A model generated the notes under the pieces. The model did no database searches. It was given only the letters and a program-made list of their open reading frames with translations, and was not told the DNA's origin. Position numbers and translations under genes: made by a program. Below, piece after piece: positions 1,006 to 63,019 of a stretch of DNA of 64,000 nt. This DNA comes from Labia minor. Lineage: Eukaryota; Arthropoda; Insecta; Dermaptera; Spongiphoridae. Each line of letters begins with the position of its first letter. The first letter of the stretch is position 1. The stretch lies in the NCBI GenBank assembly GCA_963082975.1, contig OY720345.1, positions 25,738,611-25,802,610 on the forward strand, given 5' to 3'.

Positions 1006-1752
1006 AGATATGATTCAACCGGTGTGATTGGGATTTATATGAAATAACACGTAATTCAAACATAAAAACTCAGAAAGATGAAATGCTTGTATATTTAATT
1101 ATGTAAGTTGTAAATATTAAAAGAATACATAATTTAAATAACATATTTACATGTTTCTGGAACAATGAATATTTCCTTTGTCTTACTAAATTGTTTGAGG
1201 GGTATAATTTTACTCAAAACCGGGGACCACTACACTCCACCTTGAAATAAATATGATGAAATTTCACTTGTGTTGATCTTCTAAAGCAGTGGTTCTTAAA
1301 CTGTGGTCCGCGGACCCCTGGGGGTCCGCGAAGCCTTTACTGGGGGTCCGCGGTCCTCGGAAAAAAATCATCGTAAAAATATATACATATATAAATATTT
1401 AAAGTTCATTGTTTAACTATATCCTCCTAGAGAATTACGGCTATAATTTAATACTATTAATAATACTATTTTATTTTATTAAATTGATAATTATGTCAAT
1501 TAATTTTTTGTGAATAAATAAACATATATAAAAAACTATATATAAAATTTGAATTTTCATCCATTCATTCATTTAAAATCATTTTTCGATTGTTCCTTTA
1601 AAATAACCCCTCTTAGGGGCTCGGAAGGGGAGGCATATAAGGGAATTTTCTTTCACTTTGTTATTGGGGAAAACCAGGGGAGGGGACAGTCTTACCCGGA
1701 AAAACCCAAATTGTCAGCGTCCACTCTGGGATTTTAAACAGTTTTAAAGCAA

Positions 1753-1862
1753 ATGTTAATTATAAGTTCATTTCTCAACGAGTTGTATCTTTAAATTATT
1801 TTTATTAATGTTAATTATAAGTTCATTTCTCAACGAGTTGTATCTTTAAATTATTTTTATTA
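1753..1862 (+). repeat. 55-bp tandem duplication in hAT 5' region
   Basis: The unit beginning ATGTTAATTATAAG at 1753 is repeated exactly at 1808, upstream of the transposase ORF. The same duplication is in the second copy (about 59670-59779), so it predates their separation. Further short repeats (CATTTAAAATGAT units, 2125-2250) follow, and the 24-bp length difference between copies falls in these. Confidence 0.85.
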
Positions 1863-2326
1863 ATTTAATTAATTATAATTAAATTATAGCTAATAATAGT
1901 TTATTATAGCTAATAATTTTTTTTAATTTTTAGTGTAATTTGCATGATCATTATTTTATAAAAACACTAAACACATTTTGCAATTTCCCTGAAAGGCTGT
2001 TTTTGAGAGTAAGTATAAGTTAGTTTTATGAATAAAAAATATTTATTTTAATAATATTTTAGAATCAAATTACGAAATTAATAATATTTTAGAATCAAAT
2101 TACGAAATATATTTATTATATAAATTAATATTCATTTAAAATGATATTAAATCATTTATTTAAAATGATTTAAAACATTTATTAAAATGATTTAAAACAT
2201 TCATTTAAAATGATATTAAAACATTCATTTAAAATCATATTAAAACATAGCTAGTAAATAATAATTCGTTATATTTATATTATATTTATATTATTGTAGT
2301 TCAATGTTAATAAATTACTCCATAAA

Positions 2327-4186
2327 ATGGATCGTTGGCTACAAACTGGTTCAACACAGAAACGGAAAGAATCAGATGATGAGGCATCAACAGCAAACTC
2401 TACCAAGAAACGCAAAACTAGAAAATATTCGGATGATTATTTATCATTTGGATTTACTTATATTTGCAACAATGATGTGGAAAGACCAGTCTGCGTTCTA
2501 TGTCAGGAAAGTTTATCCAATGAAAGTATGAAACCTGCTAATCTCAGACGTCATTTACAAACAAAGCACAGCGAGCATGTTAGTAAGTCTATCGAATTTT
2601 TTAAAATGAAAAAAGAAGAACTTAATTCAAGTCAGAAATTGATGGTAAAGACGGGATCTGGTGGTATGAGTAAGAAAGCAGTAATGGCATCATATGAAGT
2701 AGCTCTACTTATTGCTAAAGCAGGAAAGCCGCATAATATAGCAGAGCAATTAATTCTTCCTGCTACAAAAGTAATTACAAATATAATGTTAGGAACTAAA
2801 GCAGCAAACGATATAAATTTGATTTCATTATCAAATGATACGGTTAAGAATAGGATTGAAGACATGTCATGTAATATAAAAGAAGAATTAATATCGAGAG
2901 TGCGCAAAAGTCACTATTACTCATTACAATTGGATGAAAGTACTGATGTCACTAATAATGCCAATTTGTTAGCTTTCATTAGATATGAGTTTGAAAATCA
3001 AATACAAGAAGATGTATTGTTTTGTGATTCACTACCTTCACGAACGACAGCTAATGACATATTTAACAGTTTGAATAATTTTATAACCGAAAATGAAATA
3101 GAGTGGCCAAAATGTGTTGGAATTTGCACTGATGGTGCTCGTGCAATGTCAGGTACAAGAACTGGATTGATTGCTCTTATTCAAAATGTTGCGCCTCAGG
3201 TTGTTTGGAATCATTGCTGCATTCACAGAGAATCATTAGCAGCCAAAAATATGTCACCAGATTTGAAAAGAACATTAGACGAAGTAGTTAAAATTGTCAA
3301 TTTCATTAAGGCTCGTCCACTTAATTCCAGAGTTTTTAAAATTTTGTGTGAGGAAATGGGTAGTCAACATACACATTTATTATTACATACAGATGTACGT
3401 TGGTTGTCCCGCGGGAAAGTACTCATTCGCCTTTTTGAGCTTCGAGATGAAATACGATTGTTTTTAATAGATGCGCATTTTGAACTGACCGAATGTTTCA
3501 ATGATTTTATCTGGTTAGCTAAGGTGGCTTACTTGACTGATATTTTTACAAAATTGAACGAACTTAATTTGAGCCTGCAAGGTACTGTTGTAAATATATT
3601 TAAAGTTGAAGATAAAATAGAAGCAATGATTAAAAAAATCGACTTGTGGTCGAAACGCATCCAGAACGGTGTATATGAGTCTTTTCCAACTCTCAATGAT
3701 TTCATAGAAAGCTCCAGTGAAAAATTGCTTAATCAAACGCGTCAATTATTTGTTGAACATTTAATTACTTTGAAAAGCAACTTCAGGAAGTATTTTTCTA
3801 CTCCTGATCCTTGCAATAACTGGATCAAAGATCCATTTAATATGGAAATTACAAATGCTAAACATTTATCTGCACCTGAACAAGATATTCTCGTGGAATT
3901 ATCATGTGATACAACTTATAAACTAAAATTTAACAAAACTGAATTGAGCAACTTTTGGTTACTTCTCAGGTCAGATTATCCTGCGCTTGCAAATAAAGCA
4001 CTTCAACACTTGATTCCATTCTGCACAACATATTTATGCGAACAAGCTTTTTCGGTACTATTTTATATTAAGTCTAAATATAGAAACAAATTAAATGTAG
4101 AGCCGGATCTTAGATTAAAAGTTTCCAATATTAAGCCAGATATTGAGATTCTTGTTTCAAGAAAACAACTGCATACATCTCATTAA
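2327..4186 (+). CDS. hAT transposase, 619 aa, intact (copy A)
   Basis: Cut-and-paste transposase expected to bind the element's ends and excise and reinsert it in the nucleus. Visible parts: a basic N-terminus (KKRKTRK, residues 27-33); a BED-type zinc finger with C56-x2-C59 and H76-x4-H81; the RNase H-like core with D203 in LQLDESTD, D269 in CTDGARAMSG, a C297-x2-H300 motif, W359 in DVRWLSRG, and the probable third acidic residue E572 in CEQAFSVL; and the C-terminal hAT dimerisation region (about 555-619). The family includes the host-domesticated ZBED5/FAM200/SCAND3 proteins, all Buster derivatives. The ORF is uninterrupted and intron-free. The start was chosen because it precedes the basic region and zinc finger in the only long frame. 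The copy at 60220-62079 encodes an identical protein. Activity is inferred, not shown. Confidence 0.95.
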   Translation: MDRWLQTGSTQKRKESDDEASTANSTKKRKTRKYSDDYLSFGFTYICNNDVERPVCVLCQESLSNESMKPANLRRHLQTKHSEHVSKSIEFFKMKKEELNSSQKLMVKTGSGGMSKKAVMASYEVALLIAKAGKPHNIAEQLILPATKVITNIMLGTKAANDINLISLSNDTVKNRIEDMSCNIKEELISRVRKSHYYSLQLDESTDVTNNANLLAFIRYEFENQIQEDVLFCDSLPSRTTANDIFNSLNNFITENEIEWPKCVGICTDGARAMSGTRTGLIALIQNVAPQVVWNHCCIHRESLAAKNMSPDLKRTLDEVVKIVNFIKARPLNSRVFKILCEEMGSQHTHLLLHTDVRWLSRGKVLIRLFELRDEIRLFLIDAHFELTECFNDFIWLAKVAYLTDIFTKLNELNLSLQGTVVNIFKVEDKIEAMIKKIDLWSKRIQNGVYESFPTLNDFIESSSEKLLNQTRQLFVEHLITLKSNFRKYFSTPDPCNNWIKDPFNMEITNAKHLSAPEQDILVELSCDTTYKLKFNKTELSNFWLLLRSDYPALANKALQHLIPFCTTYLCEQAFSVLFYIKSKYRNKLNVEPDLRLKVSNIKPDIEILVSRKQLHTSH

Positions 4187-4221
4187 ATATGTAAGTTATA
4201 TTTAATGAGATAGATGCAGTT
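4167..4221 (+). repeat. Hairpin spanning the transposase stop codon (copy A)
   Basis: Arms 4167-4190 and 4198-4221 are inverted repeats with one mismatch in 24 positions and a 7-base loop; the TAA stop lies in the left arm. The left arm begins AACTGCATAC and the right ends GATGCAGTT. It could act in RNA 3' processing or form short double-stranded RNA; function is unknown. It is also present in copy B. Confidence 0.85.
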
Positions 4222-4780
4222 ATTTTTTAAAATATTTCTTATTTAATATTTTCTGAAAAAAATTATAAAATATTTATATGAATTTAATGTAAGTACCCAT
4301 TATAATTTGTGAGATTTGTTGCTATGACAATGTTTGTATTTTCTTTCTTCAATATTATAATTTCTAATAAAATGTGTTCTACAATATGCAAAAAAATCGT
4401 TATTCACCAATCACTGTTAGAAATATTCATCATATATCCTTGTCCTTATGAGATCGTAAGCCAGAAATTAATTAATAAAATGACGTAAAGTACCTAAAGT
4501 TGTGATGGGGGTCCGTCAAAAAAATTTTTTTCAAGTGGGGGTCCGTGGAGTACATAAGTTTAAGAACCTATGTTCTAAAGGGTGGACAAAACAAAGCCCC
4601 CTTAAACGACGATTCGCTTATAACTGGGGTATGCTTAATCTGGTGGCTTAATATAGGTGGTTGTTATCGTTCCCTAATGCCTTTCCTATGCCAAATACCT
4701 AGTTTTCGAGATATAGAAAACGTCCCATATCCCTCACTTTTATTATATATATAAGTGTAATTTTTTGCTCTGGTTAAAAA

Positions 4781-5817
4781 AATACAATTTTGAAGAGAAA
4801 TATATATTTGTAATGTATAATATATTATTAATTGAATTTAATCCAAATTTTACATTTGAAACTTTTTCTTTCAAATGCTCCTCTTTTTTTTAAGGGTTCT
4901 GACGTAAGAGTAACCTTGAAATAATTTTCTCCTCTAAATTTCTTCTTTTCATGTTTAGTCAAAATTTTTAAAAGTTACAAAATTTGCAATTATTTCTGGA
5001 ATTATGATATAGGTATGTTCAAAATATATTTAAAATAGATAAAACTTCCTAATAGGTGTAACTATACTTAGTAAATTTGAACTCAATCAGATATATGGGG
5101 GGGGGGGGGGGGGTTACAATCCGTCACTTGTCCCCCTCCTCAATACATATAAAAAATGAACATTAAAAAAAAAAAAAAAATTTGTAACCTTTAAATGTAA
5201 ATAATCATAAAAATCTCATATTCGACTCTTTTTAACATAAACATTTATTTATGTTCTTCTCGTTTTTTGTTGAATTTAAATAGAAAAATTTAATTCAAGA
5301 ATCGAAAATGTCTTATCACTCCAACTGGCAACTAATTTTTAAATTTCGGTTGAAAAATAATATTTTAATTTTGTGAAATCTCTTTATTTTGAAAATGTCC
5401 CAAATTAAAAAGACATCTCAATAAGTGCGTGGGCGGTCTGCTGGGTCGTGTATTGATCATTTGCTGCTATGTAATGGCAAAGAGCCCACACCAATCCTTA
5501 AACTTCATCCCCCAACTCCAAGTTTGATTCATGCGCACCATAAAAATGACAATTTTTTTTATAAAATAAACAAAAAACAAAACAAAAGAAAATATTGAAA
5601 AACAATAACAAACTTTGAATTTCCATATACAATATAATAAGCATAAATGTTTTTAATTAAAATGGAAAAATTACTAATTAATTATTTCTTGAAAAAAAAA
5701 AAATATAAAAAGAAATAGCATTTGTGTGATAAAATTATTTTTCTTTACAGTCAAGAGAAAAAATATAAATTTATGAAGATAATGCTAATAAATATAAAAT
5801 ATTTTAAAATAATTAAC

Positions 5818-5861
<44 letters not shown>

Positions 5862-6162
5862 TATTTAATATAAAATTAAGAAAATAAATATTTATAGTTA
5901 CTTTATAGTTTGTTTATTAAGATCTCTCTATTCACTTATCTTTTAAATCTAGATATCATCTTTCATTTTTATATAATTGGTTTTATAAAAGAAAATCTGT
6001 TAAAAGATGATATCAATGTCGGGTCAACTTTGTCGACTAACGAACCATCAAAACATATCTTTTTATTCTGAACCCTTTTTTTATTATATTTCCTGGTACA
6101 TCAATTTTATGCGACAATAGTATTCAAGGTATTTTAAAATACAATTATTTGTAACATTTATG
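4781..6162. other. AT-rich spacer with homopolymer and TA runs
   Basis: No coding sequence recognised. Contains a run of 17 G at 5097-5113, an A run at about 5164-5180, and a TA microsatellite at about 5824-5854. Confidence 0.7.
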
Positions 6163-6380
6163 GGCCGGAAAAAAGATGAGATTACTGAAGAATGGCGGTG
6201 ATTACATAACAAGTAATTTCATGACCACTCTAAAAACATACAATCATAGGAAGCGTAGCGTGAGTGAAAGCTTGCAAGAAGTTAGATTAAGAGGAAATCA
6301 ATTGGAAAACCACCGGTGAGAAGACCAAGAACACAGTATAAATTGAAAGTAATGTGGTTACTACGGCCAAGAACATTTGA
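6163..6380 (+). mobile_element. LINE reverse-transcriptase C-terminal fragment
   Basis: Translation in shifting frames gives pieces such as KKDEITEEWR, LHNK and NQLENHR, which resemble the conserved tail of a common arthropod non-LTR retrotransposon reverse transcriptase (family pattern GPKKDEVTGEWRRLHN). Only the 3' portion remains, with several stops and frameshifts. It belongs to the same family as the minus-strand fragments at 34.5, 38.6 and 44.8 kb. Confidence 0.6.
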
Positions 6381-6664
6381 GTTTAACAATACCACAGAAA
6401 ACTTTTCACTCATCTCAATTAATTACAATGTCTTTCTTATATTATTTCCTATTAAATTTTAGAAAATAAAGTTATTTATTATTAACATATCTTTAGATTT
6501 ATGGTTTATTAATATTAAAAAAAAATACGTTTCAGTAGTTTGAGTTAAATTTGAATAGTATTATTAATAAAATAATGTTTAATATAAAATTAATATTTTA
6601 AAATCATTTTTTTCAACTAAAAATAAATATTTTTCTATCAAGAATTTTTAAACATTTCAATATA

Positions 6665-7550
6665 CAAGGTCTGTTCAAAAGAAAGTGAATTTTGAATTTT
6701 CTCTGGCTATATACATTCTATTAACGAAATTTTTTGTTTGTTATGTTGGTACACACATGTTTCTCATATGTTGACATTATCAGTCATTTTGGATTAGTAG
6801 TTTGTTTTTGAAAACTGAAAAAGTTAGTCACGTTTTTGTGTGTTCTTCAATTTTTAAACAATCTGTATTAAATTTTGCTTTAAAAATGGAATAAAGTGCT
6901 CCAAGCACTTAAAATGTTGACTAAGACATTTGCTGAGTCTACTTTGTCTCAAAAAAATGTTTATAAGTGGTACAAACACTTTAAAAAAGCACGCCAATTT
7001 CGATCAAATGTGAAGCTGCAGTTTTCCTCGATTTCAATGGCGTGGTGCATCATGAGTTCTTGCCAACAGTTCGTACTGTTAATATGGAATACTACAAGGA
7101 AGTTATGCAACGTTAGCGTGAAGCAATAAGGCTCAAACGATCGGAATTGTAGAAAAACAAATAATGGATAATCCACCAGCTCATACATCATTGCTTGTTC
7201 GTAATTTTTTGGCCAAAACCAACACCGTAATCATGAGTTAACCACCGTATTCACGAGATTTGGCTCCCTACGAATTTTACCTATTCACAAAACTGAAGAG
7301 ACTAATGAAAGGAAAGGGTTTTGCCACAATTGATGAGATAAAGTTGGAGTCGAAGAACGAGCTGATAGCCATACCGAAAAGCTCATAACAGAAGTGCTTT
7401 GAGAATTGGAAGAAGCGCTGGCATAAGTGTATTATATCTGAGGGAAATTACTTAGAAGGGAACAAAATGGATATAATAATGGATATTGATAAATAAATAA
7501 ATAAATTTCGAAATAATTCGAAATTCACCTTTTCTTTTGAACAAACCTAG
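6665..7550 (+). mobile_element. Mariner element, degraded (family M)
   Basis: An 886-bp element with TA on both sides and inverted ends CAAGGTCTGTTCAAAAG and CTAGGTTTGTTCAAAAG. The interior keeps fragments of a mariner transposase on the + strand: an N-terminal helix-turn-helix region with QKNVYKWYKHF (about 6950), and a C-terminal part with PYSRDLAPYEF and GKGFATIDEIK (7245-7345). Stops, frameshifts and internal deletion leave no functional ORF. In this copy the third catalytic position is E rather than D. Same family as the elements at 18.1 and 22.1 kb. Confidence 0.85.
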
Positions 7551-7552
7551 TA

Positions 7553-8782
7553 TATCTCTTCATTTCCACCCTTCATGATCTTAAATAAATTATTCTAATT
7601 ATATGAGAAGATTTTTAAAAATTATATATAATTTCTCTTCTCAATTCTTCATAATCTTCAAGTCACCAATATCGCAGTAATAATTTAATATTTAAATTAA
7701 ACAATTTTAAATTTTCATTTATTTATACTGATATTGATTTTCTTATATTTCTTCTTGAAATTATTACATTCATTATTACAAATCCTATTAAATCTTTAAA
7801 GATTAAATTAAATAATCATTTGATTTGATTTATTTGATTTGTTTAGTTATATTATTATATTATTTCAATCATTAATTAATATTATATATATAAATGTTCA
7901 TTTTCAAAATAGCAAAACATTCAATGGAGAATGTGCGATTCAAATATGAATAAAGCAATTTCAATTCTGTTGTGTTAAATAACTTTCAATTGTTAAATTC
8001 AAATTCAAAATAATTTCAAAAGTTTATTTTATGTTGCTTTGTCAATGAATTTTAAAAAAAATGATGAATTAAAAAATTATTAATTATCTAATATGTACAA
8101 TTTTTAATTCTTGAAAGGAATATTTTTGTCCTTGAACTGATGAGTTAATATGAATCAATAATATTCGTATATATATATATGTTAGATAAGTATAATTGCA
8201 TATGTTTCATTTTAAATAAAAATACAATAAAATATTCAATATTCTATGTGTATTATATTAAATTAAAACTCGAAGTTAACTGTAATAATAACAATAAGAA
8301 GAAGAATCGATTAAATTATTAATTATATATTGATAATAATTAAAGAAACCTGGAAAATTGGATTTTAATTATATAAACATTCTACTAAAATATAGTTATA
8401 ATTTTCAGAATGCAATATGCTGAGTTTATTATTGGCATAGAACAGGTGATATTCGATAGAGAATACAGTATAAGTAAATGTAAATAGATGTAAATGGATC
8501 TTTGAAAGTGCCAGTTTGAATAAAGCTTTTGATTAAGTTCTTGTCATAATATTATTTGCTATCCAATGAATTGGAAAGTCAAAGTACGAGTATCATGGTA
8601 TCATCATTCGTATAAAGTTAATCTGGATATTGTATAAATATCAATAGACAAAACCTTGGTAGCTTTTAAGGGTTTTCAATCTCAGAATGGTGAACTTTGA
8701 TCTCTTGAAAATAGAATCTTCTCCTTTACCAAAATATAAAATCTATTTTATCTGTGTTAATTTGGTAAATTCATATGGGAAT
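7553..8782. other. AT-rich spacer
   Basis: I see no ORF, RNA gene or recognisable repeat here. Confidence 0.6.
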
Positions 8783-8784
8783 AT

Positions 8785-8905
8785 ACTCTGAGGATCACGC
8801 AGAGCTTTAAAGAGAAATTATTAATTATTGAATTTCCCTAAGCCCGAACAAGAGTCTTCAGTGTGGTAGACTGTCGTGCTAACCACTAAACGACTAAAGA
8901 GTCTT
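8785..8905 (-). mobile_element. tRNA-derived SINE, copy 1
   Basis: Read on the minus strand this has a tRNA-like head: an A-box-like GTTTAGTGGTTAGC, an anticodon-arm-like CAGT-7 nt-ACTG hairpin, and a B-box-like CTTGTTCGGGCT, followed by an unrelated tail. The same unit is at 55101-55305. Stems are too degenerate for a working tRNA; two dispersed copies indicate a SINE family. Confidence 0.65.
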
Positions 8906-8906
8906 T

Positions 8907-9908: not shown

Positions 9909-9974
9909 TTAAAACTTCTTATTCTGGAAAGTAAATTCCTAACCACCCCTCAGTTTCTATATTTCCTCTTTATA

Positions 9975-10377: not shown

Positions 10378-10379
10378 TA

Positions 10380-18070: not shown

Positions 18071-18072
18071 TA

Positions 18073-33591: not shown

Positions 33592-33831
33592 CTATTACAA
33601 ATATTACACATTACATAATAGAACCAATATCAAAAGAATAGAATTAGAAATACTAAGATTCATAGAAATTCTTTCTCTTCCTCCTCCCTCTTAAAAAAAT
33701 TACTAGTAATTTTATCTTAAAATAATCAAGAACACATTAATCCTCTAATATTCCAATTTCAAGAATTTTTCAAGAAAACTCGCAATTGACTTAATTATTT
33801 TGTTTATTTTAAGCAATTTTTACCGACCGAC

Positions 33832-34306
33832 GATAGTAAGGGAGGTATTGTTTTCACACCAAATTTCACATGTGGAGATTTTTACATATCTCCACGAATC
33901 ATGCATTTTCTAAACAGAAAAAAGTATTTTTAGCATGATGTCTGTCCGTCCGTCTGTCCGTCTGTCCGTCCGTCTGTCCGTCCGTCCGTATAGATGTGTA
34001 CAGCCTGAACGGCTCAACCGATTTTGATGAAATTTGGTATATTTACTTAATGCATCAGTGGGATGAATTGATCAACTTTTGGTGCAATTCCGGAAACCGG
34101 AAGTGGTAGTATTAGCGTACGACGATAGGAAGGAAAGGGTTATTTTCACACCAAAGGAGATTTTTTTATTTATCACCACGAATCATGCACTTTGTATTGG
34201 TTTTATCCTCGAGAGAAATCATATTTATTAGTTTTTTCTTGATTTAAACTTATATGACGTCATCCAGCCATTCATGACGTCACAGCCTGGTCTTGCATAT
34301 ATATTA
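33832..34306 (+). mobile_element. Helentron-like element, family 1, 5' part
   Basis: Begins ACCGACCGACGATAGTAAGG after a T tract and follows the other family-1 copies through the CCGT/CTGT microsatellite (33943-33989) to GCATATATAT. It then departs from them at about 34306, where a palindromic GC block follows. The matching 3' half is missing here or displaced. Confidence 0.8.
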
Positions 34307-37682: not shown

Positions 37683-37723
37683 ATTCAATGTAAATAGGAA
37701 TTATTAAAAAATTTATCATTTTT

Positions 37724-38315
37724 ACCGACCGACGATAGTAAGGGAGGTATTGTTTTCACACCAAATTTCACATGTGGAGATTTTTACATATCTCCACGAA
37801 TCATGGATTTTCTTAACAGAAAAAAGTATTTTTAGCATGAGGTCTGTCCGTCCGTCCGTCCGTATAGATGTGTACAGCTTGAACGGCCCGACGGATTTTG
37901 ATGAAATTTGGTGTAATTACTTAATGCATCAGTATGATGAATTGGTCAACTTTTGGTGTATATCCGGAAACCAGAAGTGGTAGTATTTGCGATCGACGAT
38001 AGGAAGGGAAGGGTTATTTTAACACCAAATTTTTTTCACATAAGGAGATTTTTTACATATCTATACGAATCATGCACTTTGTATTGGTTTTATCCTCGGG
38101 ATAAATCATCTGCATTAGTTTTTTCTTAATTTAAAATTATATGACGTCATCCAGCCATTCATTCATTCAAATTAAAAATATTTATGTTCTATCCATATCT
38201 GTTTTTTATTACATTAATAGGCATATTAAAATTATTTGAAATTGTTTCTGTAGCTGGAAATTAATTTTTTTCAAACCGTGGCTCGGTTCTGTGCCTGGCT
38301 ACAGGTCAACTTATT
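37724..38315 (+). mobile_element. Helentron-like non-autonomous element, family 1
   Basis: About 592 bp, from ACCGACCGACGATAG (after TTTTT) to CAACTTATT. It shows the short CCGT tract (37847-37863), the conserved mid-part and the 3' hairpin region, here slightly decayed (TGCCTGGCTACAGG). Its open frame at 37750-37983 is shared with sister copies only as repeat sequence. Confidence 0.8.
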
Positions 38316-40472: not shown

Positions 40473-41114
40473 CCTGTGGCCAGGTCCGAACCGACCGACG
40501 GTTTGAAATAAATTAATTTCCAGCTACAGAAACAATTTCAAATAATTTTCATATATCTATTAATGTAATTAAAAACAGATATGGATACATAAATAATAAA
40601 TAAGTATAAACATTTTTAATTTTATTTTATTTATAATATATATGCAAGACCAGGCTGTGACGTCATGAATGGCTGGATGACGTCATATAATTTTAAATCA
40701 AGAAAAAACTAATAAATATGATTTTTCTCGAGGATAAAACCAATACAAAGTGCATGATTCGTGGTGATATATAAAAAAATCTCCTTTGGTGTGAAAATAA
40801 CCATTTCCTTCCTATCGTCGATCGCTAATACTACCACTTCCGGTTTCCGGAATTGCACCAAAAGTTGATCAATTCATCCCACTGATGCATTAAGTAAATA
40901 TACCAAATTTCATCAAAATCGGTTGAGCCGTTCAGGCTGTACACATCTATACGGACGGACAGACGGACAGACGGACGGACAGACGGACGGACAGACATCA
41001 TGCTAAAAATACTTTTTTCTGTTTAGAAAATGCATGATTCGTGGAGATATGTAAAAATCTCCACATGTGAAATTTGGTGTGAAAACAATACCTCCCTTAC
41101 TATCGTCGGTCGGT
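40473..41114 (-). mobile_element. Helentron-like non-autonomous element, family 1
   Basis: A full-length minus-oriented copy, 642 bp, reading on the minus strand from ACCGACCGACGATAGTAAGG (after TTTTTT) to CAACTTATT. The CGGACAGA microsatellite lies at 40951-40996. The inverted mate of the 5' motif (CGTCGGTCGGT on the minus strand) and the ACCTGGCCACAGGT hairpin are intact. It is followed by TTTG rather than A, which limits the element's 3' end to CTTATT. Confidence 0.85.
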
Positions 41115-41225
41115 AAAAAATCGATTTAAATTATCATTATTTAAAGTTTAAGTATAGCTCTAATTTTATAAAATGTTAAATCTTATGTTTACTTAAGACT
41201 TTTTAATTAGATTTCTTTACTTTCC

Positions 41226-41266
<41 letters not shown>

Positions 41267-41286
41267 AAAATGTATTATTATAACTA

Positions 41287-42650
41287 TTGGGTTGGCAACT
41301 AAGTCATTGCCTATTTCATTCATAGATGACTTCAGTTGAATTTTTACCGACCGACGATAGTAAGGGAGGTATTGTTTTCACACCAAATTTCACATGTGGA
41401 GATTTTTACATATCTCCACGAATCATGCATTTTCTTAACAGAAAAAAGTATTTTTAGCATGATGTCTGTCCGTCCGTCTGTCCGTCTGTCCGTCTGTCCG
41501 TCTGTCCGTCTGTCCGTCCGTCTGTCCGTCCGTATAGATGTGTACAGCCTGAACGGCTTAACGGATTTTGATGAAATTTGGTATATTTACTTAATGCATC
41601 AGTGGGATGAATTGATCAACTTTTGGTGCAAATCCGGAAACCGGAAGTGGTAGTATTAGCGATCGACGATAAGAAGGGAAGGGTTATTTTCGCACCAAAT
41701 TTCACATAAGGAGATTTTTTGACATATCACCACGAATGTATTGGTTTTATCCTCGGGAAAAATCATCTTCATTATGTTTTTCTTAATTTAAAATTATATG
41801 ACGTCACAGCCTCGGGTAACGCCGGCAACGCCGGCTACTCCAGCTATATTTATATATAAAATAAAATTAAAAATATGTATGTTCTATCCATATCTGTTTT
41901 TTATTACATTAATAGATATATTAAAATTATTTGAAATTGTTTCTGAAGCTGGAAATTAATTTATTTCAAACCGTCGGTCGGTTCGGACCTGGCCACAGGT
42001 CAACTTATTAGGTTTGCCGACCTAGTCCAAATGTAAAACACATTTTGCTATTTGATAGTTGGTAATTCAGCTGTCAATCAGTAAAAAAGGTTTTTTGATC
42101 GGTTCCGTAGTTTTCGTTTGACGTTCGTTGAAAAATGGAAGATCAAAAGGAACATTAAGTGTTTTTCAATTCATGTATGTGATACCTGAAGCTTCTCTGA
42201 ATCTCACGTGTTGTAGTGTGACGATCCGAATCGGTTATTGCTTTGATTAGGTCGATATCAAATTCAACTGGACGACCAGAGTGTTTTTCATCTTTGAGTG
42301 AAAAATCTCCAGAACGAAATTTGGCAAACCAATTTTGACACTGCCGTTCCTTTAAGGCTTCGTCACCATAAACAGCTTATAACTTCTTATGAGCTTGCGA
42401 TGCGTTTTTCCCTTTGCGGAAATAAAAAAGCAAAATATGACGAAAATGTTCCTTTTGATCTTCTATTTTTCAACGAACGTCAAACGAAAACTACGAAACC
42501 GATCAAAAAACTTTTTTTACTGATTGACAGTTGAATTACCAACTATCAAATACCAAAATGTGTTTTACATTTGGACTACGTCGGTAAACCTAAAAATTCA
42601 ACTGAAGTCATCTATGAATGAAATCGGCAATGACTTAGTTGCCAACCTAA
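41287..42650 (-). mobile_element. Mellifera-type mariner foldback, with nested element
   Basis: TA-flanked ends TTGGGTTGGCAACTAAGTC and its inverted counterpart are typical of mellifera-subfamily mariners. The minus strand from about 42480 down to 42200 encodes an N-terminal transposase piece with EDQKEHFRHILLFYFRKGKN, KERQCQNWFAKFRSGDFSLK and SDRHTTTRE, but no catalytic domain. The left arm (41287-41345 plus 42010-42156) is an inverted copy of the element's own 5' end (42444-42650) through the first transposase codons, so both termini derive from the same end. In the minus-strand ORF the start ATG is ATA, while the inverted arm keeps ATG. A 664-bp Helentron-like element is inserted in the left arm. 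Confidence 0.85.
41346..42009 (+). mobile_element. Helentron-like element, family 1, nested in mariner
   Basis: Exactly 664 bp separate the two halves of the mariner arm. The uninterrupted arm shows TTGAATTTTTAGGTTT, so the insertion lies between the T run and AGG, and the element runs ACCGACCGACG...CAACTTATT. Its structure is a 5' terminal ACCGACCGACG, an inverted mate CGTCGGTCGGT at 41972-41982, a hairpin ACCTG-GCCA-CAGGT at 41987-42000, and the end at 42009. A CCGT/CTGT microsatellite fills 41465-41533. No Rep/helicase ORF. This fits a Helentron-associated non-autonomous element (HINE); the class is inferred from architecture. Confidence 0.88.
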
Positions 42651-54112: not shown

Positions 54113-54454
54113 TTTTGAGAAATGTAGCTCAATCGGAAGAGGATCATTACCTACAACGTTTTGATTTTTTTCCTCTAAAGTGTCCGTAAAAATAAAGATA
54201 TATGTTTGATAGTTTTTCACAAAATTAAAAATTGTATAAAACTATCTATAGAATTTCAGCTTGATTAATTTGCTGAAAGTACCGTAATTAATTTTTTAAC
54301 ACTGCAAATCACGCGCCAACACGTGACCAAACATGCGCTGGTTAAATAAATATTATTTATTAATTTTAATTTATAATTAATTAAATTTAATTTAAATATA
54401 ATATGTGTCCAATTCAAATTGCGAGATAGTCGAGCGGAGACACTCCAGCTTATT
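54113..54454 (+). mobile_element. Helentron-like element, family 2, 3' part
   Basis: Matches the second half of the copies at 32.3 and 42.7 kb, from TTTTGAGAAATGTAGCTCA to the best-preserved 3' end of the family: GCGAGATAGT (mate of the 5' motif, 54421-54430), a hairpin AGC-GGAG-ACA-CTCC-A-GCT, then CTTATT at 54449-54454. It ends 148 bp before SPCA exon 2. Confidence 0.8.
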
Positions 54455-54602
54455 TAAAAAAAAATAATATATTTTTCGATAAATGATATTGGATTAAAAG
54501 GATTAAACTAAAAATTAATTAAAATTATTCTAACTCAAACTTTAGCAGAAATATGAAATAATTTAAATGATAAATAAATATTGGAATGTGGGATCTGTAC
54601 AG

Positions 54603-54800
54603 GTTGATGCCCAGGAGACCATGTGGCTGACAACGAGCGATGCTTGTCAGCTGAGCGCTGAGGAGGTGGCTGCTCGGCTACGCGTCGACCTGAGGACGGG
54701 TTTGCGATGGAGAGAGGCTGAGTTACGTAGACAACTTGCGGGATTCAACGAGCTCACCGTCCGGGAGGACGACCCCACATGGAAAAAATACATTGAACAG
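54603..54800 (+). CDS. Exon of secretory-pathway Ca2+/Mn2+ ATPase (SPCA family)
   Basis: Exactly 66 codons between TACAG and the donor CAG|GTAACT. The peptide includes TSDACQLSAEEVAARLRVDL, RTGL, GFNELTVREDDPTWKKYIEQ. It follows the N-terminal cytosolic domain of animal SPCA pumps: human ATP2C1 has the pattern S-x-L-x-x-x-EVA-x-x-L-x-x-DL-x-x-GL ... G-x-NE-x-x-x-x-EDEPLWKKYI-x-Q just before the first membrane helix. These P-type ATPases load the Golgi with Ca2+ and Mn2+. The codons are strikingly GC-rich compared with the introns. In-frame stops upstream and the lack of another AG leave 54602 as the most likely acceptor. The rest of the gene (membrane helices, DKTGT site) must lie beyond the window. 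Paralogue not resolved; a retained pseudo-exon is unlikely. Confidence 0.85.
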
Positions 54801-55100
54801 GTAACTAACTCAATTAACCCGCTTTCCCTGACACACACTGTCACAAATTAGAACATCAAAGATCTATTCTTGAAATGAATGAGCAGCTTTTTCTTTTTAT
54901 TCAGATCAACCCCTCCATTATAACACAATATAACAAAATATTTATTCACTATAATAAAGCAAAAATTAAATATAAACGATTAAATTCACATCTCCATAAT
55001 TTTACTTTTATCATAAAAGATTCATATAATTGAAAAATAAAAATAAACACCAACACTGAATCATTTTTTTATCAATATTATTATTATTATTATTTACGGA

Positions 55101-55305
55101 TAGACCTGGAGGATCACAGAGACCTTTAATTATTGAATTTCCCTATACCCGAACTCGAGTCTTCAGTGTGGTAGACTGTCGTGCTAACCACTATTTTTTT
55201 TATTTAAAATGTGTTTATTGAGCCAATAATATACAATTTATAATTACAAAGATTATCCCACGTTGGTTTTTACATGTGCTAACTACTAAACCACTGAAGA
55301 GTCAT
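55101..55305 (-). mobile_element. tRNA-derived SINE, copy 2, interrupted
   Basis: Minus-strand SINE as at 8785-8905, with B-box-like CGAGTTCGGGTA and A-box-like AGTGGTTAGCAC. It is split by an 82-bp insertion at 55194-55275. Confidence 0.65.
55194..55275 (-). mobile_element. Retroposed 82-bp insert inside the SINE
   Basis: Flanked by GTGCTAACCACTA (55181-55193) and GTGCTAACTACTA (55276-55288), a 13-bp target duplication with one change. On the minus strand the insert has CAATAAAC and ends in an A run, so it is a short reverse-transcribed piece, perhaps a LINE or mRNA 3' end. Confidence 0.7.
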
Positions 55306-57339
55306 TTATCAATATATATCTATTATATATATATTGAAATTTATTTTATCATTTCTATCTTAAATATATATATTTATGTAAAATATGTACGCTTAAGTAA
55401 TATAATTTTTTTTAAGATAAAATTAAAAATATCTTATGAAAAATTCAAAAATGAAAATAAATAAATGGAATGTTTCCATAAACCAAAATTTTATTTTCAC
55501 TTATCCAAGCATTTAGCTTTTATAATAATAAATTAATATTGACAAGTGCAAGCGTTAGTGATGGAATCCTTTTCAGCTGCTTGTCGGAGTTTATTCTGAT
55601 GGAAAAAGAAAATAAACATGAACGCCTTTTTAGAATTTTTCATTCAGATAAATAGAATTATAGCCAAATCATATGCCATATGGAAAAGTCATGTTTCCTG
55701 TTTCTTTTTTCATAAACATCTACTTAATCTAGAAAGATTTTTAAACAAATTGAAAAATTAAATTTGAATAAATAAAAAAAAAAATTAATAAATTTATTGA
55801 GTGCATTTAGAATCATGGATCAATAGTCATTGATATATTTAGGCAGGAAATGTGGATGTCTCATATTTAGGGTCAGATTAGGGAAAACTAAAAATAAAAT
55901 TTAGATTAATTTAAAATAGAGAATCTCATAAATGAAAAAATAAATTTTTCAATTTTTAAATGTAAAAATATTTTTCATAGCTCTATGGATTAATAAGTTG
56001 TAATGTTTGTATGTTTATAAAATTGTATAAATTTAGTCAGGTCAAGTTCTACATTCTTCATAAGATTGATTTGTTCAAATAAAAAAAATAGCTTCGAATT
56101 CTTGATGTCATTTGTCCCATTAGCACAAATGAAAATTAATCGATTTAAAAACAAAACTAGGCAATCAAAATAACATAATATTTATTTTCCCATCAATATT
56201 TATAAAAATATATTTATTAAATACTATCTATTTTAACGATATCAATTGATTTTTATTGTGTTTAGATCGTAATAAAATTGACAAAAGTCCAATCACTTAT
56301 AAAAACAAATGAAATGAAGTAGAAAACCTATTTAGAAGATTAATTAATTACATCAACACTATAATTGAAATAAAACATTATTAAATTATTTCCTTTGAGG
56401 AAAGTAAACTATTGTACTTGCAAACTAAAAACCCTCCAAAATTAAAACTATTAGAATGGTGAATCAATATGATAATTTAATGAATATCAAGGGCTCACTA
56501 GCATTTAAATGTGTTATTTATTTATCATTATTCTATTATTCGACAAAAAGTTTAGATGCATGAAATTTATTAATTAACGATTGAAATGATTAATAATTAA
56601 GTAAATAATAATTTTTTCCTTTAATCTAAGAAAATAAAACTTTTATATAAATGATTTGACATTATTATTTAAAATTTATTCTTTTTAAAAAATTGACATA
56701 ACACAAATTTTATGTAAAAATCGTCGATGGAAAATATTAAAATTGGTTTTATTATAATTAAATGTTCTTTTTTTTAAATGACCATTCACATCAACATTAA
56801 AGTTTGATTGATTCCTTATCAATATCTAACTCCTGAGTATAAAGAGGTCAAAAGGGCACAAGCATGTTAATTCATTTTTCTATTTTATCTACAAGAAATT
56901 AAAAAACAACAAAAAAAAATTGAAATATACCATATACCTCAGTATATTTGATTTTTTCTTGTACAAACAGTCAATTAATTTAATAAATTGTACTACTGTT
57001 TATTTTTTCTATATGTATTCTACTTTATTTTAAAAATAAATAACCTTTATTTACATATACATTTAAGATTTATTTAATGCGAATCCTTTTTAATTTAATT
57101 GATACTTACATTATTTATTTTATTAATGAATATTTTAAACTTTATAATCTATTATATAAATTTATAATTAAACTTCATTCAAAATTGATTTCTTTTTATT
57201 AAATATTATAATTTATTGTAGTTATTTTTAAATATAAATGGTGATAATCTTATCTTATTATACTAGCAAAAATTGTATATATATAATATATATATTTGTA
57301 TATTTTTGAGATATTAAACCACTCTAACGTTTTATTGAA

Positions 57340-57470
57340 ATTCACACCATAGATAATATTTATAAAGAAAAATCGATCTGTATTGGTTTCAGTCTCAGAA
57401 AAAAATCAACTTTATTAGTATTTTCTTAATTTAAAATAGTAAATTTAAATGACGTCACTATGTCATTCAT
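57340..57470 (+). mobile_element. Helentron-like element, family 1, old internal fragment
   Basis: Contains TTCACACCA, CTGTATTGGTTTCAGTCTC, TTATTAGTATTTTCTTAATT and ATGACGTCA in the same order as family-1 copies (compare 34146-34280). Both ends are lost. Confidence 0.5.
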
Positions 57471-57539
57471 ATTGAAATTTGCCTGTCTCCTTTTTTTTAA
57501 TTGATATTGTATTAATATTTTTTTATATTTTTATTAATA

Positions 57540-58705
57540 AATAAAAGGAAAAAAATATAACCTCCTTTCTTAATCCTACTTTCTTATTTAAAATAATATA
57601 GACAAGTATCGGTGTTAATACAATTTCAGAATTAATATTATTATCAGTAATAATCCTTGGTCGAAACAGTCTATAAGCTATTGCTACTTTAAAAATTATA
57701 AAACTGAAGTCATTTAATTATAACAACATATATATATATATATGAATATATATAATATAGGATCAAATATTTTATAAAGTAAATGTGAATATATTTTTCA
57801 TCTTGAATGAAAATCAAGTTACTTTAATTAATTTGTACCATTTTAGGAAATAAATTTTTTCTGGGTCATTTGTAGAAAACCCATTTAAAAATTTTAATAA
57901 ATAATTAAAAAATTGTAAAATTTTTAATAAAGTTTATAATAATAAATTGTATAAATTTGTTAAAGGGTCGAGCGACAGGTACTTAATATTATAATATATT
58001 AAATATTAGTTTTTATTATTATTATGGTTATTTATAAAATTAATATTTAGATATTTATTTTTATGGTTTAAAATTATTATTTCATAAATGGCGAAAACTT
58101 TTGACAAGCACTGTAGATATAACAAAGTGAGGATTGATTGTTTAGTAGATCATCGATGGGCGTATCGTGTCATTTGAGAATGTCCGTTCAACTTTCAGCT
58201 ATCAGTAACATACTACCCTACTACCATGAAGTATTTTAAAAAAACATGACAAGTATCTTAATGAGTTATTCAAAAAAATAAAAATATCGGAAACATTATA
58301 GAAAGTTAAAACTGTATATTATTTATTTATGGTAAATATTACTAAATATTAAAAATAATATAACTTTTCAAATACCATGTTCACTTCGTTCCTTGGTTAA
58401 GACGTATGTCTAAATTCTCCCCTAAATATAAACAACACGCCTTATAGTTATGCAACATTTACATAACAAAATCAATTATTTCGTGATCAAATAAATATAG
58501 GTATGTCTTCTTAAATATCTTTTTTTAGGCTTTTGTAGTTTGAAATTATTTTCAAATTAAATTTACCAAACCAACTTATAGACTGTTTCGAGCAAGAAAT
58601 ACTACTGATAATAATATTAATTCTGAAATTATATTGACACCTGTACTTCTCTATATTATTTTAAATAAGAAAAGTTATATTTTTTCTTTTTGTATTTAAA
58701 AAAAA
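57540..58705. mobile_element. Unclassified element with about 100-bp inverted ends
   Basis: 57577-57685 and 58560-58675 are inverted repeats sharing CTTATTTAAAATAATATAGA, TTTCAGAATTAATATTATTA and CGAAACAGTCTATAAG. Weaker similarity (AAAAAATATAAC) extends outwards to about 57545 and 58700. The 0.9-kb interior has no recognisable ORF. Target duplication not determined in the AT-rich flanks. Confidence 0.7.
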
Positions 58706-60219
58706 AATATTTTTAATTTAACAATTTAATTACTTTTTATTTTATTTTGTAAATTGTGTTAATAAACTATATATTATATAAATCACTCTTAGTAAATGAT
58801 AAATAAATGATTAAAAATAATCATTTTAAAATAAAATAATAATAATAATTAAAACTTAAAGTAAAAGATATAAATTAAATTTATTATCGTAATTATATTA
58901 ACACATTATTACTTAAATTCATTAATCTTTATTAATTTTTTTCATTTTTAATTTATTGATTTTCCATTATTGTGGTAAATTAATTAATCAAATAATACAT
59001 ATATTTTCAATTTTTAGTTAAATTCTTCATTGTCTATGATTAAATAGAATATTGATGTAATATTTTCATTACAAATTTATTATTTTATTATCTATTATTT
59101 ATTTTATTTAATTTCAGCGGTTCAATTTAATTTTGATTTTCTAAACATTAGTATTAATGTAATGATATCCTGTCTACTTTCAATAAATTACAATTCTTTA
59201 TTCCAGTGGTTCTTAAACTGTGGTCCGCGGACCCCTGGGGGTCCGCGAAGCCTTTACTGGGGGTCCGCGGTCCTCGGAAAAAAATCATCGTAAAAATATA
59301 TACATATATAAATATTTAAAGTTCATTGTTTAACTATATCCTCCTAGAGAATTACGGCTATAATTTAATACTATTAATAATACTATTTTATTTTATTAAA
59401 TTGATAATTATGTCAATTAATTTTTTGTGAATAAATAAACATATATAAAAAACTATATATAAAATTTGAATTTTCATCCATTCATTCATTTAAAATCATT
59501 TTTCGATTGTTCCTTTAAAATAACCCCTCTTAGGGGCTCGGAAGGGGAGGCATATAAGGGAATTTTCTTTCACTTTGTTATTGGGGAAAACCAGGGGAGG
59601 GGACAGTCTTACCCGGAAAAACCCAAATTGTCAGCGTCCACTCTGGGGTTTTAAACAGTTTTAAAGCAAATGTTAATTATAAGTTCATTTCTCAACGAGT
59701 TGTATCTTTAAATTATTTTTATTAATGTTAATTATAAGTTCATTTCTCAACGAGTTGTATCTTTAAATTATTTTTATTAATTTAATTAATTATAATTAAA
59801 TTATAGCTAATAATAGTTTATTATAGCTAATAATTTTTTTTAATTTTTAGTGTAATTTGCATGATCATTATTTTATAAAAACACTAAACACATTTTGCAA
59901 TTTCCCTGAAAGGCTGTTTTTGAGAGTAAGTATAAGTTAGTTTTATGAATAAAAAATATTTATTTTAATAATATTTTAGAATCAAATTACGAAATTAATA
60001 ATATTTTAGAATCAAATTACGAAATATATTTATTATATAAATTAATATTCATTTAAAATGATTTAAAACATTTATTAAAATGATTTAAAACATTCATTTA
60101 AAATGATATTAAAACATTCATTTAAAATCATATTAAAACATAGCTAGTAAATAATAATTCGTTATATTTATATTATATTTATATTATTGTAGTTCAATGT
60201 TAATAAATTACTCCATAAA

Positions 60220-62079
60220 ATGGATCGTTGGCTACAAACTGGTTCAACACAGAAACGGAAAGAATCAGATGATGAGGCATCAACAGCAAACTCTACCAAG
60301 AAACGCAAAACTAGAAAATATTCGGATGATTATTTATCATTTGGATTTACTTATATTTGCAACAATGATGTGGAAAGACCAGTCTGCGTTCTATGTCAGG
60401 AAAGTTTATCCAATGAAAGTATGAAACCTGCTAATCTCAGACGTCATTTACAAACAAAGCACAGCGAGCATGTTAGTAAGTCTATCGAATTTTTTAAAAT
60501 GAAAAAAGAAGAACTTAATTCAAGTCAGAAATTGATGGTAAAGACGGGATCTGGTGGTATGAGTAAGAAAGCAGTAATGGCATCATATGAAGTAGCTCTA
60601 CTTATTGCTAAAGCAGGAAAGCCGCATAATATAGCAGAGCAATTAATTCTTCCTGCTACAAAAGTAATTACAAATATAATGTTAGGAACTAAAGCAGCAA
60701 ACGATATAAATTTGATTTCATTATCAAATGATACGGTTAAGAATAGGATTGAAGACATGTCATGTAATATAAAAGAAGAATTAATATCGAGAGTGCGCAA
60801 AAGTCACTATTACTCATTACAATTGGATGAAAGTACTGATGTCACTAATAATGCCAATTTGTTAGCTTTCATTAGATATGAGTTTGAAAATCAAATACAA
60901 GAAGATGTATTGTTTTGTGATTCACTACCTTCACGAACGACAGCTAATGACATATTTAACAGTTTGAATAATTTTATAACCGAAAATGAAATAGAGTGGC
61001 CAAAATGTGTTGGAATTTGCACTGATGGTGCTCGTGCAATGTCAGGTACAAGAACTGGATTGATTGCTCTTATTCAAAATGTTGCGCCTCAGGTTGTTTG
61101 GAATCATTGCTGCATTCACAGAGAATCATTAGCAGCCAAAAATATGTCACCAGATTTGAAAAGAACATTAGACGAAGTAGTTAAAATTGTCAATTTCATT
61201 AAGGCTCGTCCACTTAATTCCAGAGTTTTTAAAATTTTGTGTGAGGAAATGGGTAGTCAACATACACATTTATTATTACATACAGATGTACGTTGGTTGT
61301 CCCGCGGGAAAGTACTCATTCGCCTTTTTGAGCTTCGAGATGAAATACGATTGTTTTTAATAGATGCGCATTTTGAACTGACCGAATGTTTCAATGATTT
61401 TATCTGGTTAGCTAAGGTGGCTTACTTGACTGATATTTTTACAAAATTGAACGAACTTAATTTGAGCCTGCAAGGTACTGTTGTAAATATATTTAAAGTT
61501 GAAGATAAAATAGAAGCAATGATTAAAAAAATCGACTTGTGGTCGAAACGCATCCAGAACGGTGTATATGAGTCTTTTCCAACTCTCAATGATTTCATAG
61601 AAAGCTCCAGTGAAAAATTGCTTAATCAAACGCGTCAATTATTTGTTGAACATTTAATTACTTTGAAAAGCAACTTCAGGAAGTATTTTTCTACTCCTGA
61701 TCCTTGCAATAACTGGATCAAAGATCCATTTAATATGGAAATTACAAATGCTAAACATTTATCTGCACCTGAACAAGATATTCTCGTGGAATTATCATGT
61801 GATACAACTTATAAACTAAAATTTAACAAAACTGAATTGAGCAACTTTTGGTTACTTCTCAGGTCAGATTATCCTGCGCTTGCAAATAAAGCACTTCAAC
61901 ACTTGATTCCATTCTGCACAACATATTTATGCGAACAAGCTTTTTCGGTACTATTTTATATTAAGTCTAAATATAGAAACAAATTAAATGTAGAGCCGGA
62001 TCTTAGATTAAAAGTTTCCAATATTAAGCCAGATATTGAGATTCTTGTTTCAAGAAAACAACTGCATACATCTCATTAA
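60220..62079 (+). CDS. hAT transposase, 619 aa, intact (copy B)
   Basis: Identical in amino-acid sequence to the protein at 2327-4186, with all landmarks in place (BED finger C56/C59/H76/H81; D203, D269, E572; C297-x2-H300; W359). No stop or frameshift. Identity at protein level, with changes only in non-coding parts, fits either very recent copying or selection on the ORF; with so few differences the former suffices. Because it lies in sense orientation inside the SPCA intron, transcripts of the host gene would contain it before splicing. Confidence 0.95.
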   Translation: MDRWLQTGSTQKRKESDDEASTANSTKKRKTRKYSDDYLSFGFTYICNNDVERPVCVLCQESLSNESMKPANLRRHLQTKHSEHVSKSIEFFKMKKEELNSSQKLMVKTGSGGMSKKAVMASYEVALLIAKAGKPHNIAEQLILPATKVITNIMLGTKAANDINLISLSNDTVKNRIEDMSCNIKEELISRVRKSHYYSLQLDESTDVTNNANLLAFIRYEFENQIQEDVLFCDSLPSRTTANDIFNSLNNFITENEIEWPKCVGICTDGARAMSGTRTGLIALIQNVAPQVVWNHCCIHRESLAAKNMSPDLKRTLDEVVKIVNFIKARPLNSRVFKILCEEMGSQHTHLLLHTDVRWLSRGKVLIRLFELRDEIRLFLIDAHFELTECFNDFIWLAKVAYLTDIFTKLNELNLSLQGTVVNIFKVEDKIEAMIKKIDLWSKRIQNGVYESFPTLNDFIESSSEKLLNQTRQLFVEHLITLKSNFRKYFSTPDPCNNWIKDPFNMEITNAKHLSAPEQDILVELSCDTTYKLKFNKTELSNFWLLLRSDYPALANKALQHLIPFCTTYLCEQAFSVLFYIKSKYRNKLNVEPDLRLKVSNIKPDIEILVSRKQLHTSH

Positions 62080-62114
62080 ATATGTAAGTTATATTTAATG
62101 AGATAGATGCAGTT
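62060..62114 (+). repeat. Hairpin spanning the transposase stop codon (copy B)
   Basis: The same 24-bp-arm inverted repeat as at 4167-4221, unchanged. Confidence 0.85.
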
Positions 62115-63019
62115 ATTTTTTAAAATATTTCTTATTTAATATTTTCTGAAAAAAATTATAAAATATTTATATGAATTTAATGTAAGTACCCATTATAATT
62201 TGTGAGATTTGTTGCTATGACAATGTTTGTATTTTCTTTCTTCAATATTATAATTTCTAATAAAATGTGTTCTACAATATGCAAAAAAATCGTTATTCAC
62301 CAATCACTGTTAGAAATATTCATCATATATCCTTGTCCTTATGAGATCGTAAGCCAGAAATTAATTAATAAAATGACGAAAAGTACCTAAAGTTGTGATG
62401 GGGGTCCGTCAAAAAAAATTTTTTCAAGTGGGGGTCCGTGGAGTACATAAGTTTAAGAACCTATGCTTTATTCCATTATTATATAATGCTAATATGTTTA
62501 AATGTTTTTTTTCCAATTGCAAAAATAACTTTCATTTTTATTTTAAATATTTATAGTACCTATGGGTGAAAAAGATAATTAGATAAGATTTATTTATATT
62601 ATATTTGCATATATAAAGATATTTTTTTTTAAAAATTTTATTAACTAATTAAGGTGTTTTTTTCCTGAAAGTTAAATCAAATTTTTTGTCTTTTTATTAG
62701 CTTTTTATGTGAATTTACACTTCATCATTATGTTATCATATCAATATTTGTAAAATAAAAATATTAATATAAAAAAATCCTAATTCGAACTTGATTTTTT
62801 TTTAATTTCTTAAATGTTGCTTCTTTAAACCCTAAATTTTTAGAGGGATATTTAATAAATTATTAAATATTTAATATTTAATAAATTTTTTATAATAATA
62901 TAAAAATTAAATTTTAATGATCTTTATTACTCTTAATATTTACTAGTCTGCAAATGGGTATTTATTTGCCTAATTAGAATTGTTTTTCCCCAATCTTTCT
63001 TATTCCAAAACTTCTAAAA

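What the first reader, a model, noticed from the sequence alone, without database searches (positions are those of the whole stretch)
1287..62465. Two intact, near-identical Buster-type hAT transposons in one 64-kb window
Both copies have full ends, perfect target duplications and the same uninterrupted 619-aa transposase with all catalytic residues visible. Their few differences lie outside the ORF. This is what a family still moving, or stopped very recently, looks like; most other elements here are ruined.
Basis: partly seen in the sequence, partly recalled or inferred. Interest (0 to 1): 0.7.

Follow-up and report, generated by a model that had tools for sequence, protein, structure and literature searches.

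The report
Young transposon burst, 1,550 near-identical copies
The two matching "jumping genes" in this stretch of an insect genome belong to a very recent outburst of about 1,550 almost identical, mostly complete copies of one Buster-type hAT transposon, and these two share a variant found in no other copy, so one probably hopped locally from the other.

Summary
In detail: copies at 1287-4572 and 59204-62465 have identical 619-codon ORFs, perfect 8-bp target duplications, and differ by 3 substitutions and one 24-bp repeat unit. In the 604-Mb insect genome around them the element is no mere pair: 1545 exact 3' ends, 1525 exact 5' ends and 1557 coding stretches (up to 3 mismatches), reversed-pattern controls 0. 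Of 90 end-paired elements on C1 0-41 Mb, 82 are 3242-3419 bp and 3 shorter. Of 21 copies not chosen by similarity, 16 keep the full ORF. Mean pairwise divergence of 51 copies is 0.155%; 45 of 45 complete copies have perfect duplications, 44 fitting nnnTAnnn, the Buster consensus. A coding variant occurs only in the two window copies (2 against 1553), best read as a local hop, although by overall distance the pair is not unusually close. It is a new, very young member of a known family; what stands out is the number of intact autonomous copies and the scarcity of deletion derivatives. Present activity and horizontal arrival are not shown.

The parts
1287..4572 (+). copy 1 of the Buster-type hAT element, 3286 bp
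1279..1286 (.). target site duplication TTCTAAAG, left of copy 1
4573..4580 (.). target site duplication TTCTAAAG, right of copy 1
1287..1302 (+). 5' terminal inverted repeat CAGTGGTTCTTAAACT; the reverse complement of the 3' tip reads CATAGGTTCTTAAACT
1305..1350 (.). four GGTCCG sites near the 5' end, two of them forming the palindrome GGTCCGCGGACC at 1305-1316; candidate BED-domain binding sites
   Evidence: role inferred by analogy with Hermes
1752..2294 (+). AT-rich 5' region with tandem repeats (units of 55, 30, 24 and 11 bp) that appear to cause most length variation between copies
   Evidence: cause inferred from length steps
2327..4186 (+). transposase ORF, 619 aa; C56/C59/H76/H81 zinc-finger pattern, candidate catalytic D203, D269, E572; carries Q286 and K501
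   Evidence: catalytic assignment by recalled motif
3827..3829 (+). codon 501 (AAA); its 42-bp context with this A is found only in the two window copies
4510..4545 (.). two GGTCCG sites near the 3' end
59204..62465 (+). copy 2 of the same element, 3262 bp
59196..59203 (.). target site duplication CTTTATTC, left of copy 2
62466..62473 (.). target site duplication CTTTATTC, right of copy 2
60220..62079 (+). transposase ORF of copy 2, identical at DNA level to that of copy 1

Best explanation
This is an autonomous cut-and-paste hAT transposon of the Buster type that has very recently expanded to about 1,550 near-identical copies in one insect genome. Shown: two intact ends, 8-bp nnnTAnnn target duplications, an uninterrupted 619-aa ORF in most copies read, paralogous empty sites for one insertion, divergence near 0.15%, and a coding variant that only the two window copies share. 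Inferred: the transposase binds GGTCCG repeats near the ends through an N-terminal BED-type zinc finger, excises the element with a DDE active site and reinserts it with an 8-bp stagger; copy number rises by transposition during replication or by repair of the donor gap from a sister copy; one window copy arose from the other by a hop of about 58 kb. The burst is so young that most copies have not yet decayed and few deletion derivatives have formed.
For: Copy counts with zero controls: 1545, 1557, 1525. Lengths: 82 of 90 end-paired elements on C1 0-41 Mb are 3242-3419 bp, 3 shorter, 5 longer. TSDs: 45 of 45 perfect, T at position 4 in 45, A at position 5 in 44. Mean pairwise substitutions 0.155%, maximum 0.40% over 51 copies. 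ORF intact in 71 of 71 scored hits, of 3638 first-look candidates (best-ranked), and in 16 of 21 copies not chosen by similarity. Among 46 intact ORFs, 4 synonymous and 15 non-synonymous changes, against 24% synonymous expected without selection: copies look intact because young, not because each is under selection. Self-nesting: L053 inside L026. 42-mer with A1502 2 times, with G1502 1553 times. All 6 GGTCCG motifs of reference copy L016 lie within 70 bp of its ends.
Against: No transcript, small-RNA, excision or polymorphism data. Pfam matches are below the curated cut-offs (Dimer_Tnp_hAT 19.5 against 21.4, zf-BED 16.7 against 20.6); no PDB sequence match at E up to 1; the single-sequence fold was unusable (mean pLDDT 33). 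5 of 21 copies not chosen by similarity have a broken ORF. Against the local hop: by overall distance the window pair is not unusually close (3 substitutions in 3262; 23% of all pairs are as close or closer), and two of its three differing sites vary in other copies too, so gene conversion or recurrent change has been at work. Of the other neighbour pairs tested, L026/L053, L026/L027 and L018/L019 are among the closest 4-6% of pairs, L053/L027 among the closest 19%, but L054/L055, L055/L056, L054/L056 and L057/L058 are ordinary (41-76%).
Confidence: 0.87

Rival explanations
1. The burst is already over: the copies are young but silenced (for example by small RNAs) and now only decay.
For: 5 of 21 copies not chosen by similarity have broken ORFs, 2 by a stop without length change and 3 with small length changes. 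A stop some 10^5 generations ago or less would fit.
Against: No TSD change in 45 of 45; some copies differ by one base over about 2.6-3 kb; a nested insertion.
Confidence: 0.4
2. The two window copies, or the family, are a segmental or assembly duplication.
For: Near identity in one window.
Against: Different flanks and different perfect TSDs; paralogous empty sites for copy 1.
Confidence: 0.01
3. The family arrived recently by horizontal transfer, rather than expanding from an old resident lineage.
For: All 51 aligned copies lie within 0.40% of each other. A discontinuous distribution of Buster sequences has been ascribed to horizontal transfer (passage); other DNA transposons with over 87% identity between distant hosts are reported (abstract).
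Against: No donor found: one viral-contig scan gave no confirmed relative and no eukaryote collection could be searched. Diverged relatives in this genome could not be counted, because searches return best-ranked copies or at most 3 mismatches. Many other hAT domains exist in the genome (150 scored of 3604 candidates).
Confidence: 0.5
4. The shared variant of the window pair came by a third, lost copy, or by gene conversion between two independent neighbouring insertions, and not by a direct local hop.
For: Three substitutions and a repeat-unit difference separate the two, two at sites that vary in other copies; the pair ranks only within the closest 23% of pairs.
Against: The variant occurs nowhere else; Ac and other cut-and-paste elements are known to land near the donor (passages).
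Confidence: 0.35

Closest known systems
[quoted passage not shown]
   Same: 8-bp nnnTAnnn target duplications (against passages); single long transposase ORF with weak BED-type and hAT dimerisation matches
   Different: No sequence comparison with TcBuster could be made here; about 1,550 near-identical copies in one genome
Mar (Buster-type hAT of the Drosophila willistoni group)
   Same: Same TSD consensus (passages)
   Different: Mar is described as a MITE family with a relic transposase (passages); here 82 of 90 elements are full length and 16 of 21 ORFs intact
Hermes (Ac-type hAT)
   Same: Subterminal repeats near the tips, with a quasi-palindrome bound by BED domains (passages); here GGTCCGCGGACC lies at element nt 19-30
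   Different: Different motif; target consensus here nnnTAnnn, the Ac-type consensus nTnnnnAn being recalled, not from a call; no sequence match to any PDB chain at E up to 1
Harbinger-Snek in sea kraits
   Same: Recent explosive expansion of a DNA transposon (passages)
   Different: Different superfamily (recalled); 269 fully intact copies in L. colubrina, plus 2263 and 452 intact one-ORF variants and many short non-autonomous ones (passages)
Rpmar0 mariner lineage of Rhodnius prolixus
   Same: High-copy DNA transposon in an insect, more than 8000 copies (passages)
   Different: mariner, not hAT; several lineages there consist of internally deleted or rearranged copies (passages)

Membership tests
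hAT superfamily | 8-bp target site duplication | tested here: met
   45 of 45 copies with both exact tips
hAT superfamily | short terminal inverted repeats, element under 4 kb | tested here: met
   CAGTGGTTCTTAAACT against CATAGGTTCTTAAACT; 82 of 90 elements 3242-3419 bp; criteria from a passage. A minority variant is longer
hAT superfamily | C-terminal hAT dimerisation domain | tested here: inconclusive
   PF05699 at residues 536-590, E 0.00084, 19.5 bits, under the cut-off of 21.4
hAT superfamily | DDE catalytic residues | tested here: inconclusive
   Candidate D203, D269, E572 in LDESTD, CTDG, CEQAFS, assigned by recalled motif; no structural support
hAT superfamily | N-terminal BED zinc finger | tested here: inconclusive
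   zf-BED 16.7 bits, under the cut-off of 20.6; C-x2-C-x16-H-x4-H at 56-81
Buster family | target consensus nnnTAnnn | tested here: met
   T at position 4 in 45 of 45, A at position 5 in 44 of 45; consensus from passages
Buster family | transposase groups with Buster transposases in a phylogeny | not testable with these tools
   No Buster reference proteins at hand; the PDB search gave none

The most novel reading that the evidence does not exclude
This may be one of the largest populations of intact autonomous hAT copies in any animal genome, caught so early after a horizontal arrival that the family has not yet produced the usual swarm of deletion derivatives, and possibly amplifying by a route (faithful gap repair, or transposition during replication) that rarely leaves internal deletions.
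Probability: 0.25. Interest if true: 0.7.

Novelty: new member of a known kind. Interest (0 to 1): 0.52.

Why it matters
Bursts of DNA transposons are mostly studied afterwards, from decayed copies and MITEs. Here an autonomous family seems to lie within a few 10^5 generations of its expansion (rate assumed), with most copies read still coding and part of their descent readable from shared variants and repeat lengths. That allows direct tests of how a cut-and-paste element gains copies, how far it hops, when deletion derivatives appear, and whether the host has begun to silence it. Natural intact copies are also candidates for a gene-transfer tool of the TcBuster kind.

Tried and rejected
Segmental or assembly duplication: rejected by distinct flanks and TSDs. 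A family dominated by deletion derivatives: rejected for elements that keep these ends. Of the 100 listed 3' ends on C1 (0-41 Mb), 88 have the exact 190-bp coding stretch nearby; of the 12 without it, 10 pair with a 5' end at 3287-3327 bp, one is 1782 bp and one has no exact 5' end. Five of the 12 were read in full and are full-length elements (L046, L048, L049, L050, L056); L037 is a fragment of a sixth. Of the 97 listed 5' ends up to 41 Mb, 7 have no exact 3' end; 6 of these have the coding stretch at the expected distance (my comparison of the lists) and one (C1:9666194) has not. Derivatives with changed tips would be missed.

Selection on individual copies: no sign (4 synonymous of 19 changes). 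Local hopping as a general habit: weak. Viral carrier: one scan, 2 pattern matches, 0 confirmed. Structure from the single sequence: unusable, no fold search run. PDB sequence search: no match. NCBIfam: one match far under its cut-off. Rfam: nothing in the window at gathering threshold. Host: 83 matches to Pfam 7tm_6 (0 of 14 control genomes), which I recall as the insect odorant receptor family, say insect; no (TTAGG)6 (the tool notes that simple repeats may be skipped); species not identified.

Literature: seven searches listed no paper that, from titles and abstract openings, describes this element or a like number of intact hAT copies; an eighth was for local transposition. The library holds open papers only and no species name could be used. 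Papers were seen as passages or as an abstract with outline.

On re-checking I lowered the main confidence from 0.90 to 0.87 and raised the rival to the direct local hop, because the overall distance of the window pair is not exceptional.

Full report
What was checked. Both are there: 1287-4572 and 59204-62465, same strand, 99.2% identical with 3 mismatches and one gap. Their 1860-bp ORFs are identical at DNA level. The three substitutions and the single 24-bp difference fall outside the ORF; the 24 bp lie in a tandem array with a 24-bp unit. Each copy has its own perfect 8-bp target duplication.

Scale. The window is part of a 604-Mb, 71-contig genome with 83 matches to Pfam 7tm_6, recalled as the insect odorant receptor family. 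The 38-bp 3' end occurs exactly 1545 times, the 49-bp 5' end 1525 times, and a 190-bp coding stretch holding the putative catalytic glutamate 1557 times with up to 3 mismatches; reversed-pattern controls are 0 each time. At about 3.3 kb each this is about 5 Mb, near 0.85% of the genome (arithmetic). A protein search scored 71 of 3638 candidates; all 71 were full-length without stops, but these are the best-ranked and so biased.

Completeness without that bias. I paired the 100 listed 3' ends on C1 (0-41 Mb) with the listed 5' ends. Of these, 90 pair within 12 kb: 82 are 3242-3419 bp, 3 are shorter (1782, 2742, 2995) and 5 longer (3753 to 6658). The 2995-bp element is L019, whose ORF is intact; the 6658-bp value is the nested pair L026/L053. 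Ten 3' ends have no exact 5' end; two of them, L035 and L044, belong to a longer variant whose first 300 bases differ at two places from the common form. For ORF integrity I read copies chosen by position. Of the first three plus a systematic series (12 copies, L034-L036 and L039-L047), 9 are intact and 3 broken. One further member of that series, L030, was already held and is intact; it is not in the count. Three copies chosen because they lack the exact 190-mer gave 2 intact of 3, and six chosen for proximity gave 5 of 6. Together 16 of 21. L037 and L038 were fragments and are not counted; L038 is the same copy as L056. Scaled to about 1,550 copies this suggests some 1,200 intact ones; with so small a sample, all from C1, about 800 to 1,400 is possible (my estimate).

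Age. Over 51 aligned copies (45 complete, 6 as 2.6-kb tails; 28 of the 45 chosen by similarity) the mean pairwise substitution difference is 0.155% and the maximum 0.40%. With an assumed insect rate near 3e-9 per site per generation (recalled), the mean corresponds to about 2.6e5 generations or less. All 45 copies found with both exact tips have identical 8-bp duplications; copies with altered tips, such as L035/L044, were left out of that count, though L035 too is flanked by CTCTACTG on both sides. Among 46 intact ORFs the 19 distinct changes are 4 synonymous and 15 non-synonymous, close to the 24% synonymous expected without selection. So the copies are intact because they are young. Codon 286 shows three states (K, Q, E) among subfamilies.

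The window pair. Nucleotide 1502 of the ORF is A (K501) in both window copies. A 42-mer with that A occurs exactly twice in the genome, at the two window copies; the form with G occurs 1553 times. Two copies that alone share a variant and lie 58 kb apart are best read as the product of a local hop, a habit documented for Ac and other cut-and-paste elements (passages). Against this, the pair differs at 3 of 3262 sites, no closer than 23% of all pairs, and two of those three sites vary in other copies as well, so gene conversion or recurrent change has blurred descent. Across C1, neighbour gaps under 20 kb number 11 of 99 against 4.7 expected (0.6% of simulations reach it; one gap is the nested pair), while gaps under 60 kb show no excess (15 against 13.5). 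Of the eight other neighbour pairs tested, three are among the closest 4-6% of pairs, one among the closest 19%, four are ordinary. So the case for the window pair is good, that for a general habit is weak.

What it is and how it works. TSDs have T at position 4 in 45 of 45 and A at position 5 in 44 of 45, matching the Buster consensus nnnTAnnn quoted in PMC3517528 and PMC3499496 (passages). The protein carries weak traces of a BED-type finger near its start and of the hAT dimerisation region near its end, both below Pfam's cut-offs, and candidate catalytic residues D203, D269 and E572 by recalled motif. All six GGTCCG motifs of reference copy L016 lie within 70 bp of its ends, and two form the palindrome GGTCCGCGGACC at element nt 19-30. 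In Hermes, BED domains bind a quasi-palindrome of subterminal repeats (PMC10368747, passages), and proteins derived from hAT DNA-binding domains often prefer CGG or CGC (PMC8097297, passages). I infer that these repeats are the transposase's binding sites. The flanks of copy 1 belong to a dispersed repeat, and twelve paralogues run across the joined site, as expected for an insertion that duplicated 8 bp.

Novelty. The family is of a known kind. Unusual is the number of intact autonomous copies and the scarcity of deletion derivatives. For comparison, the Harbinger-Snek expansion in a sea krait counts 269 fully intact copies beside 2263 and 452 one-ORF variants and many short ones (PMC8437027, passages), and the Buster-type Mar is described as a MITE family with a relic transposase (passages). 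Named eukaryotic genomes could not be searched, so I cannot say whether this element has been catalogued. Seven literature searches listed nothing matching.

Limits. One assembly, no individuals, no expression, no relatives. Genome-wide figures are pattern counts; completeness was examined on 41 Mb of one contig. Older, diverged copies of this family could not be counted, so horizontal arrival is only one of two readings.

Noticed in passing
L051, L052 (C1:14307400-14310400, C1:838900-841600) with L044 and L035: A longer variant of the element carries about 2.1 kb of AT-rich DNA without long open frames after element nt 300, with nt 282-300 repeated on the far side; it holds a 188-bp direct repeat pair and a 160-bp inverted repeat pair. 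The 2.18-kb stretch is 99.5% identical at two sites, and both copies keep an intact ORF, so it seems to move as cargo.
   Followed up: partly
L026 with L053 (C1:13796705-13803216): One copy is inserted inside another copy of the same family, at about nt 138 of the outer one, with its own 8-bp duplication CTCTAGGA.
   Followed up: partly
2327-4186, codon 286: Three different residues (K, Q, E) at one first codon position mark subfamilies; cause unknown.
   Followed up: no
54567-54848: A GC-rich exon in this AT-rich window encodes a Cation_ATPase_N domain (PF00690, E 5.4e-11); it resembles SPCA-type calcium pumps from memory only.
   Followed up: partly
33816-34306, 37718-38162, 40634-42010: A dispersed repeat family with several copies in both orientations, the closest pair 97.6% identical.
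   Followed up: no
G000, whole genome: Many other hAT C-terminal domain hits (150 scored of 3604 candidates), three of them in open frames of 636, 865 and 868 codons; no (TTAGG)6 found.
   Followed up: no
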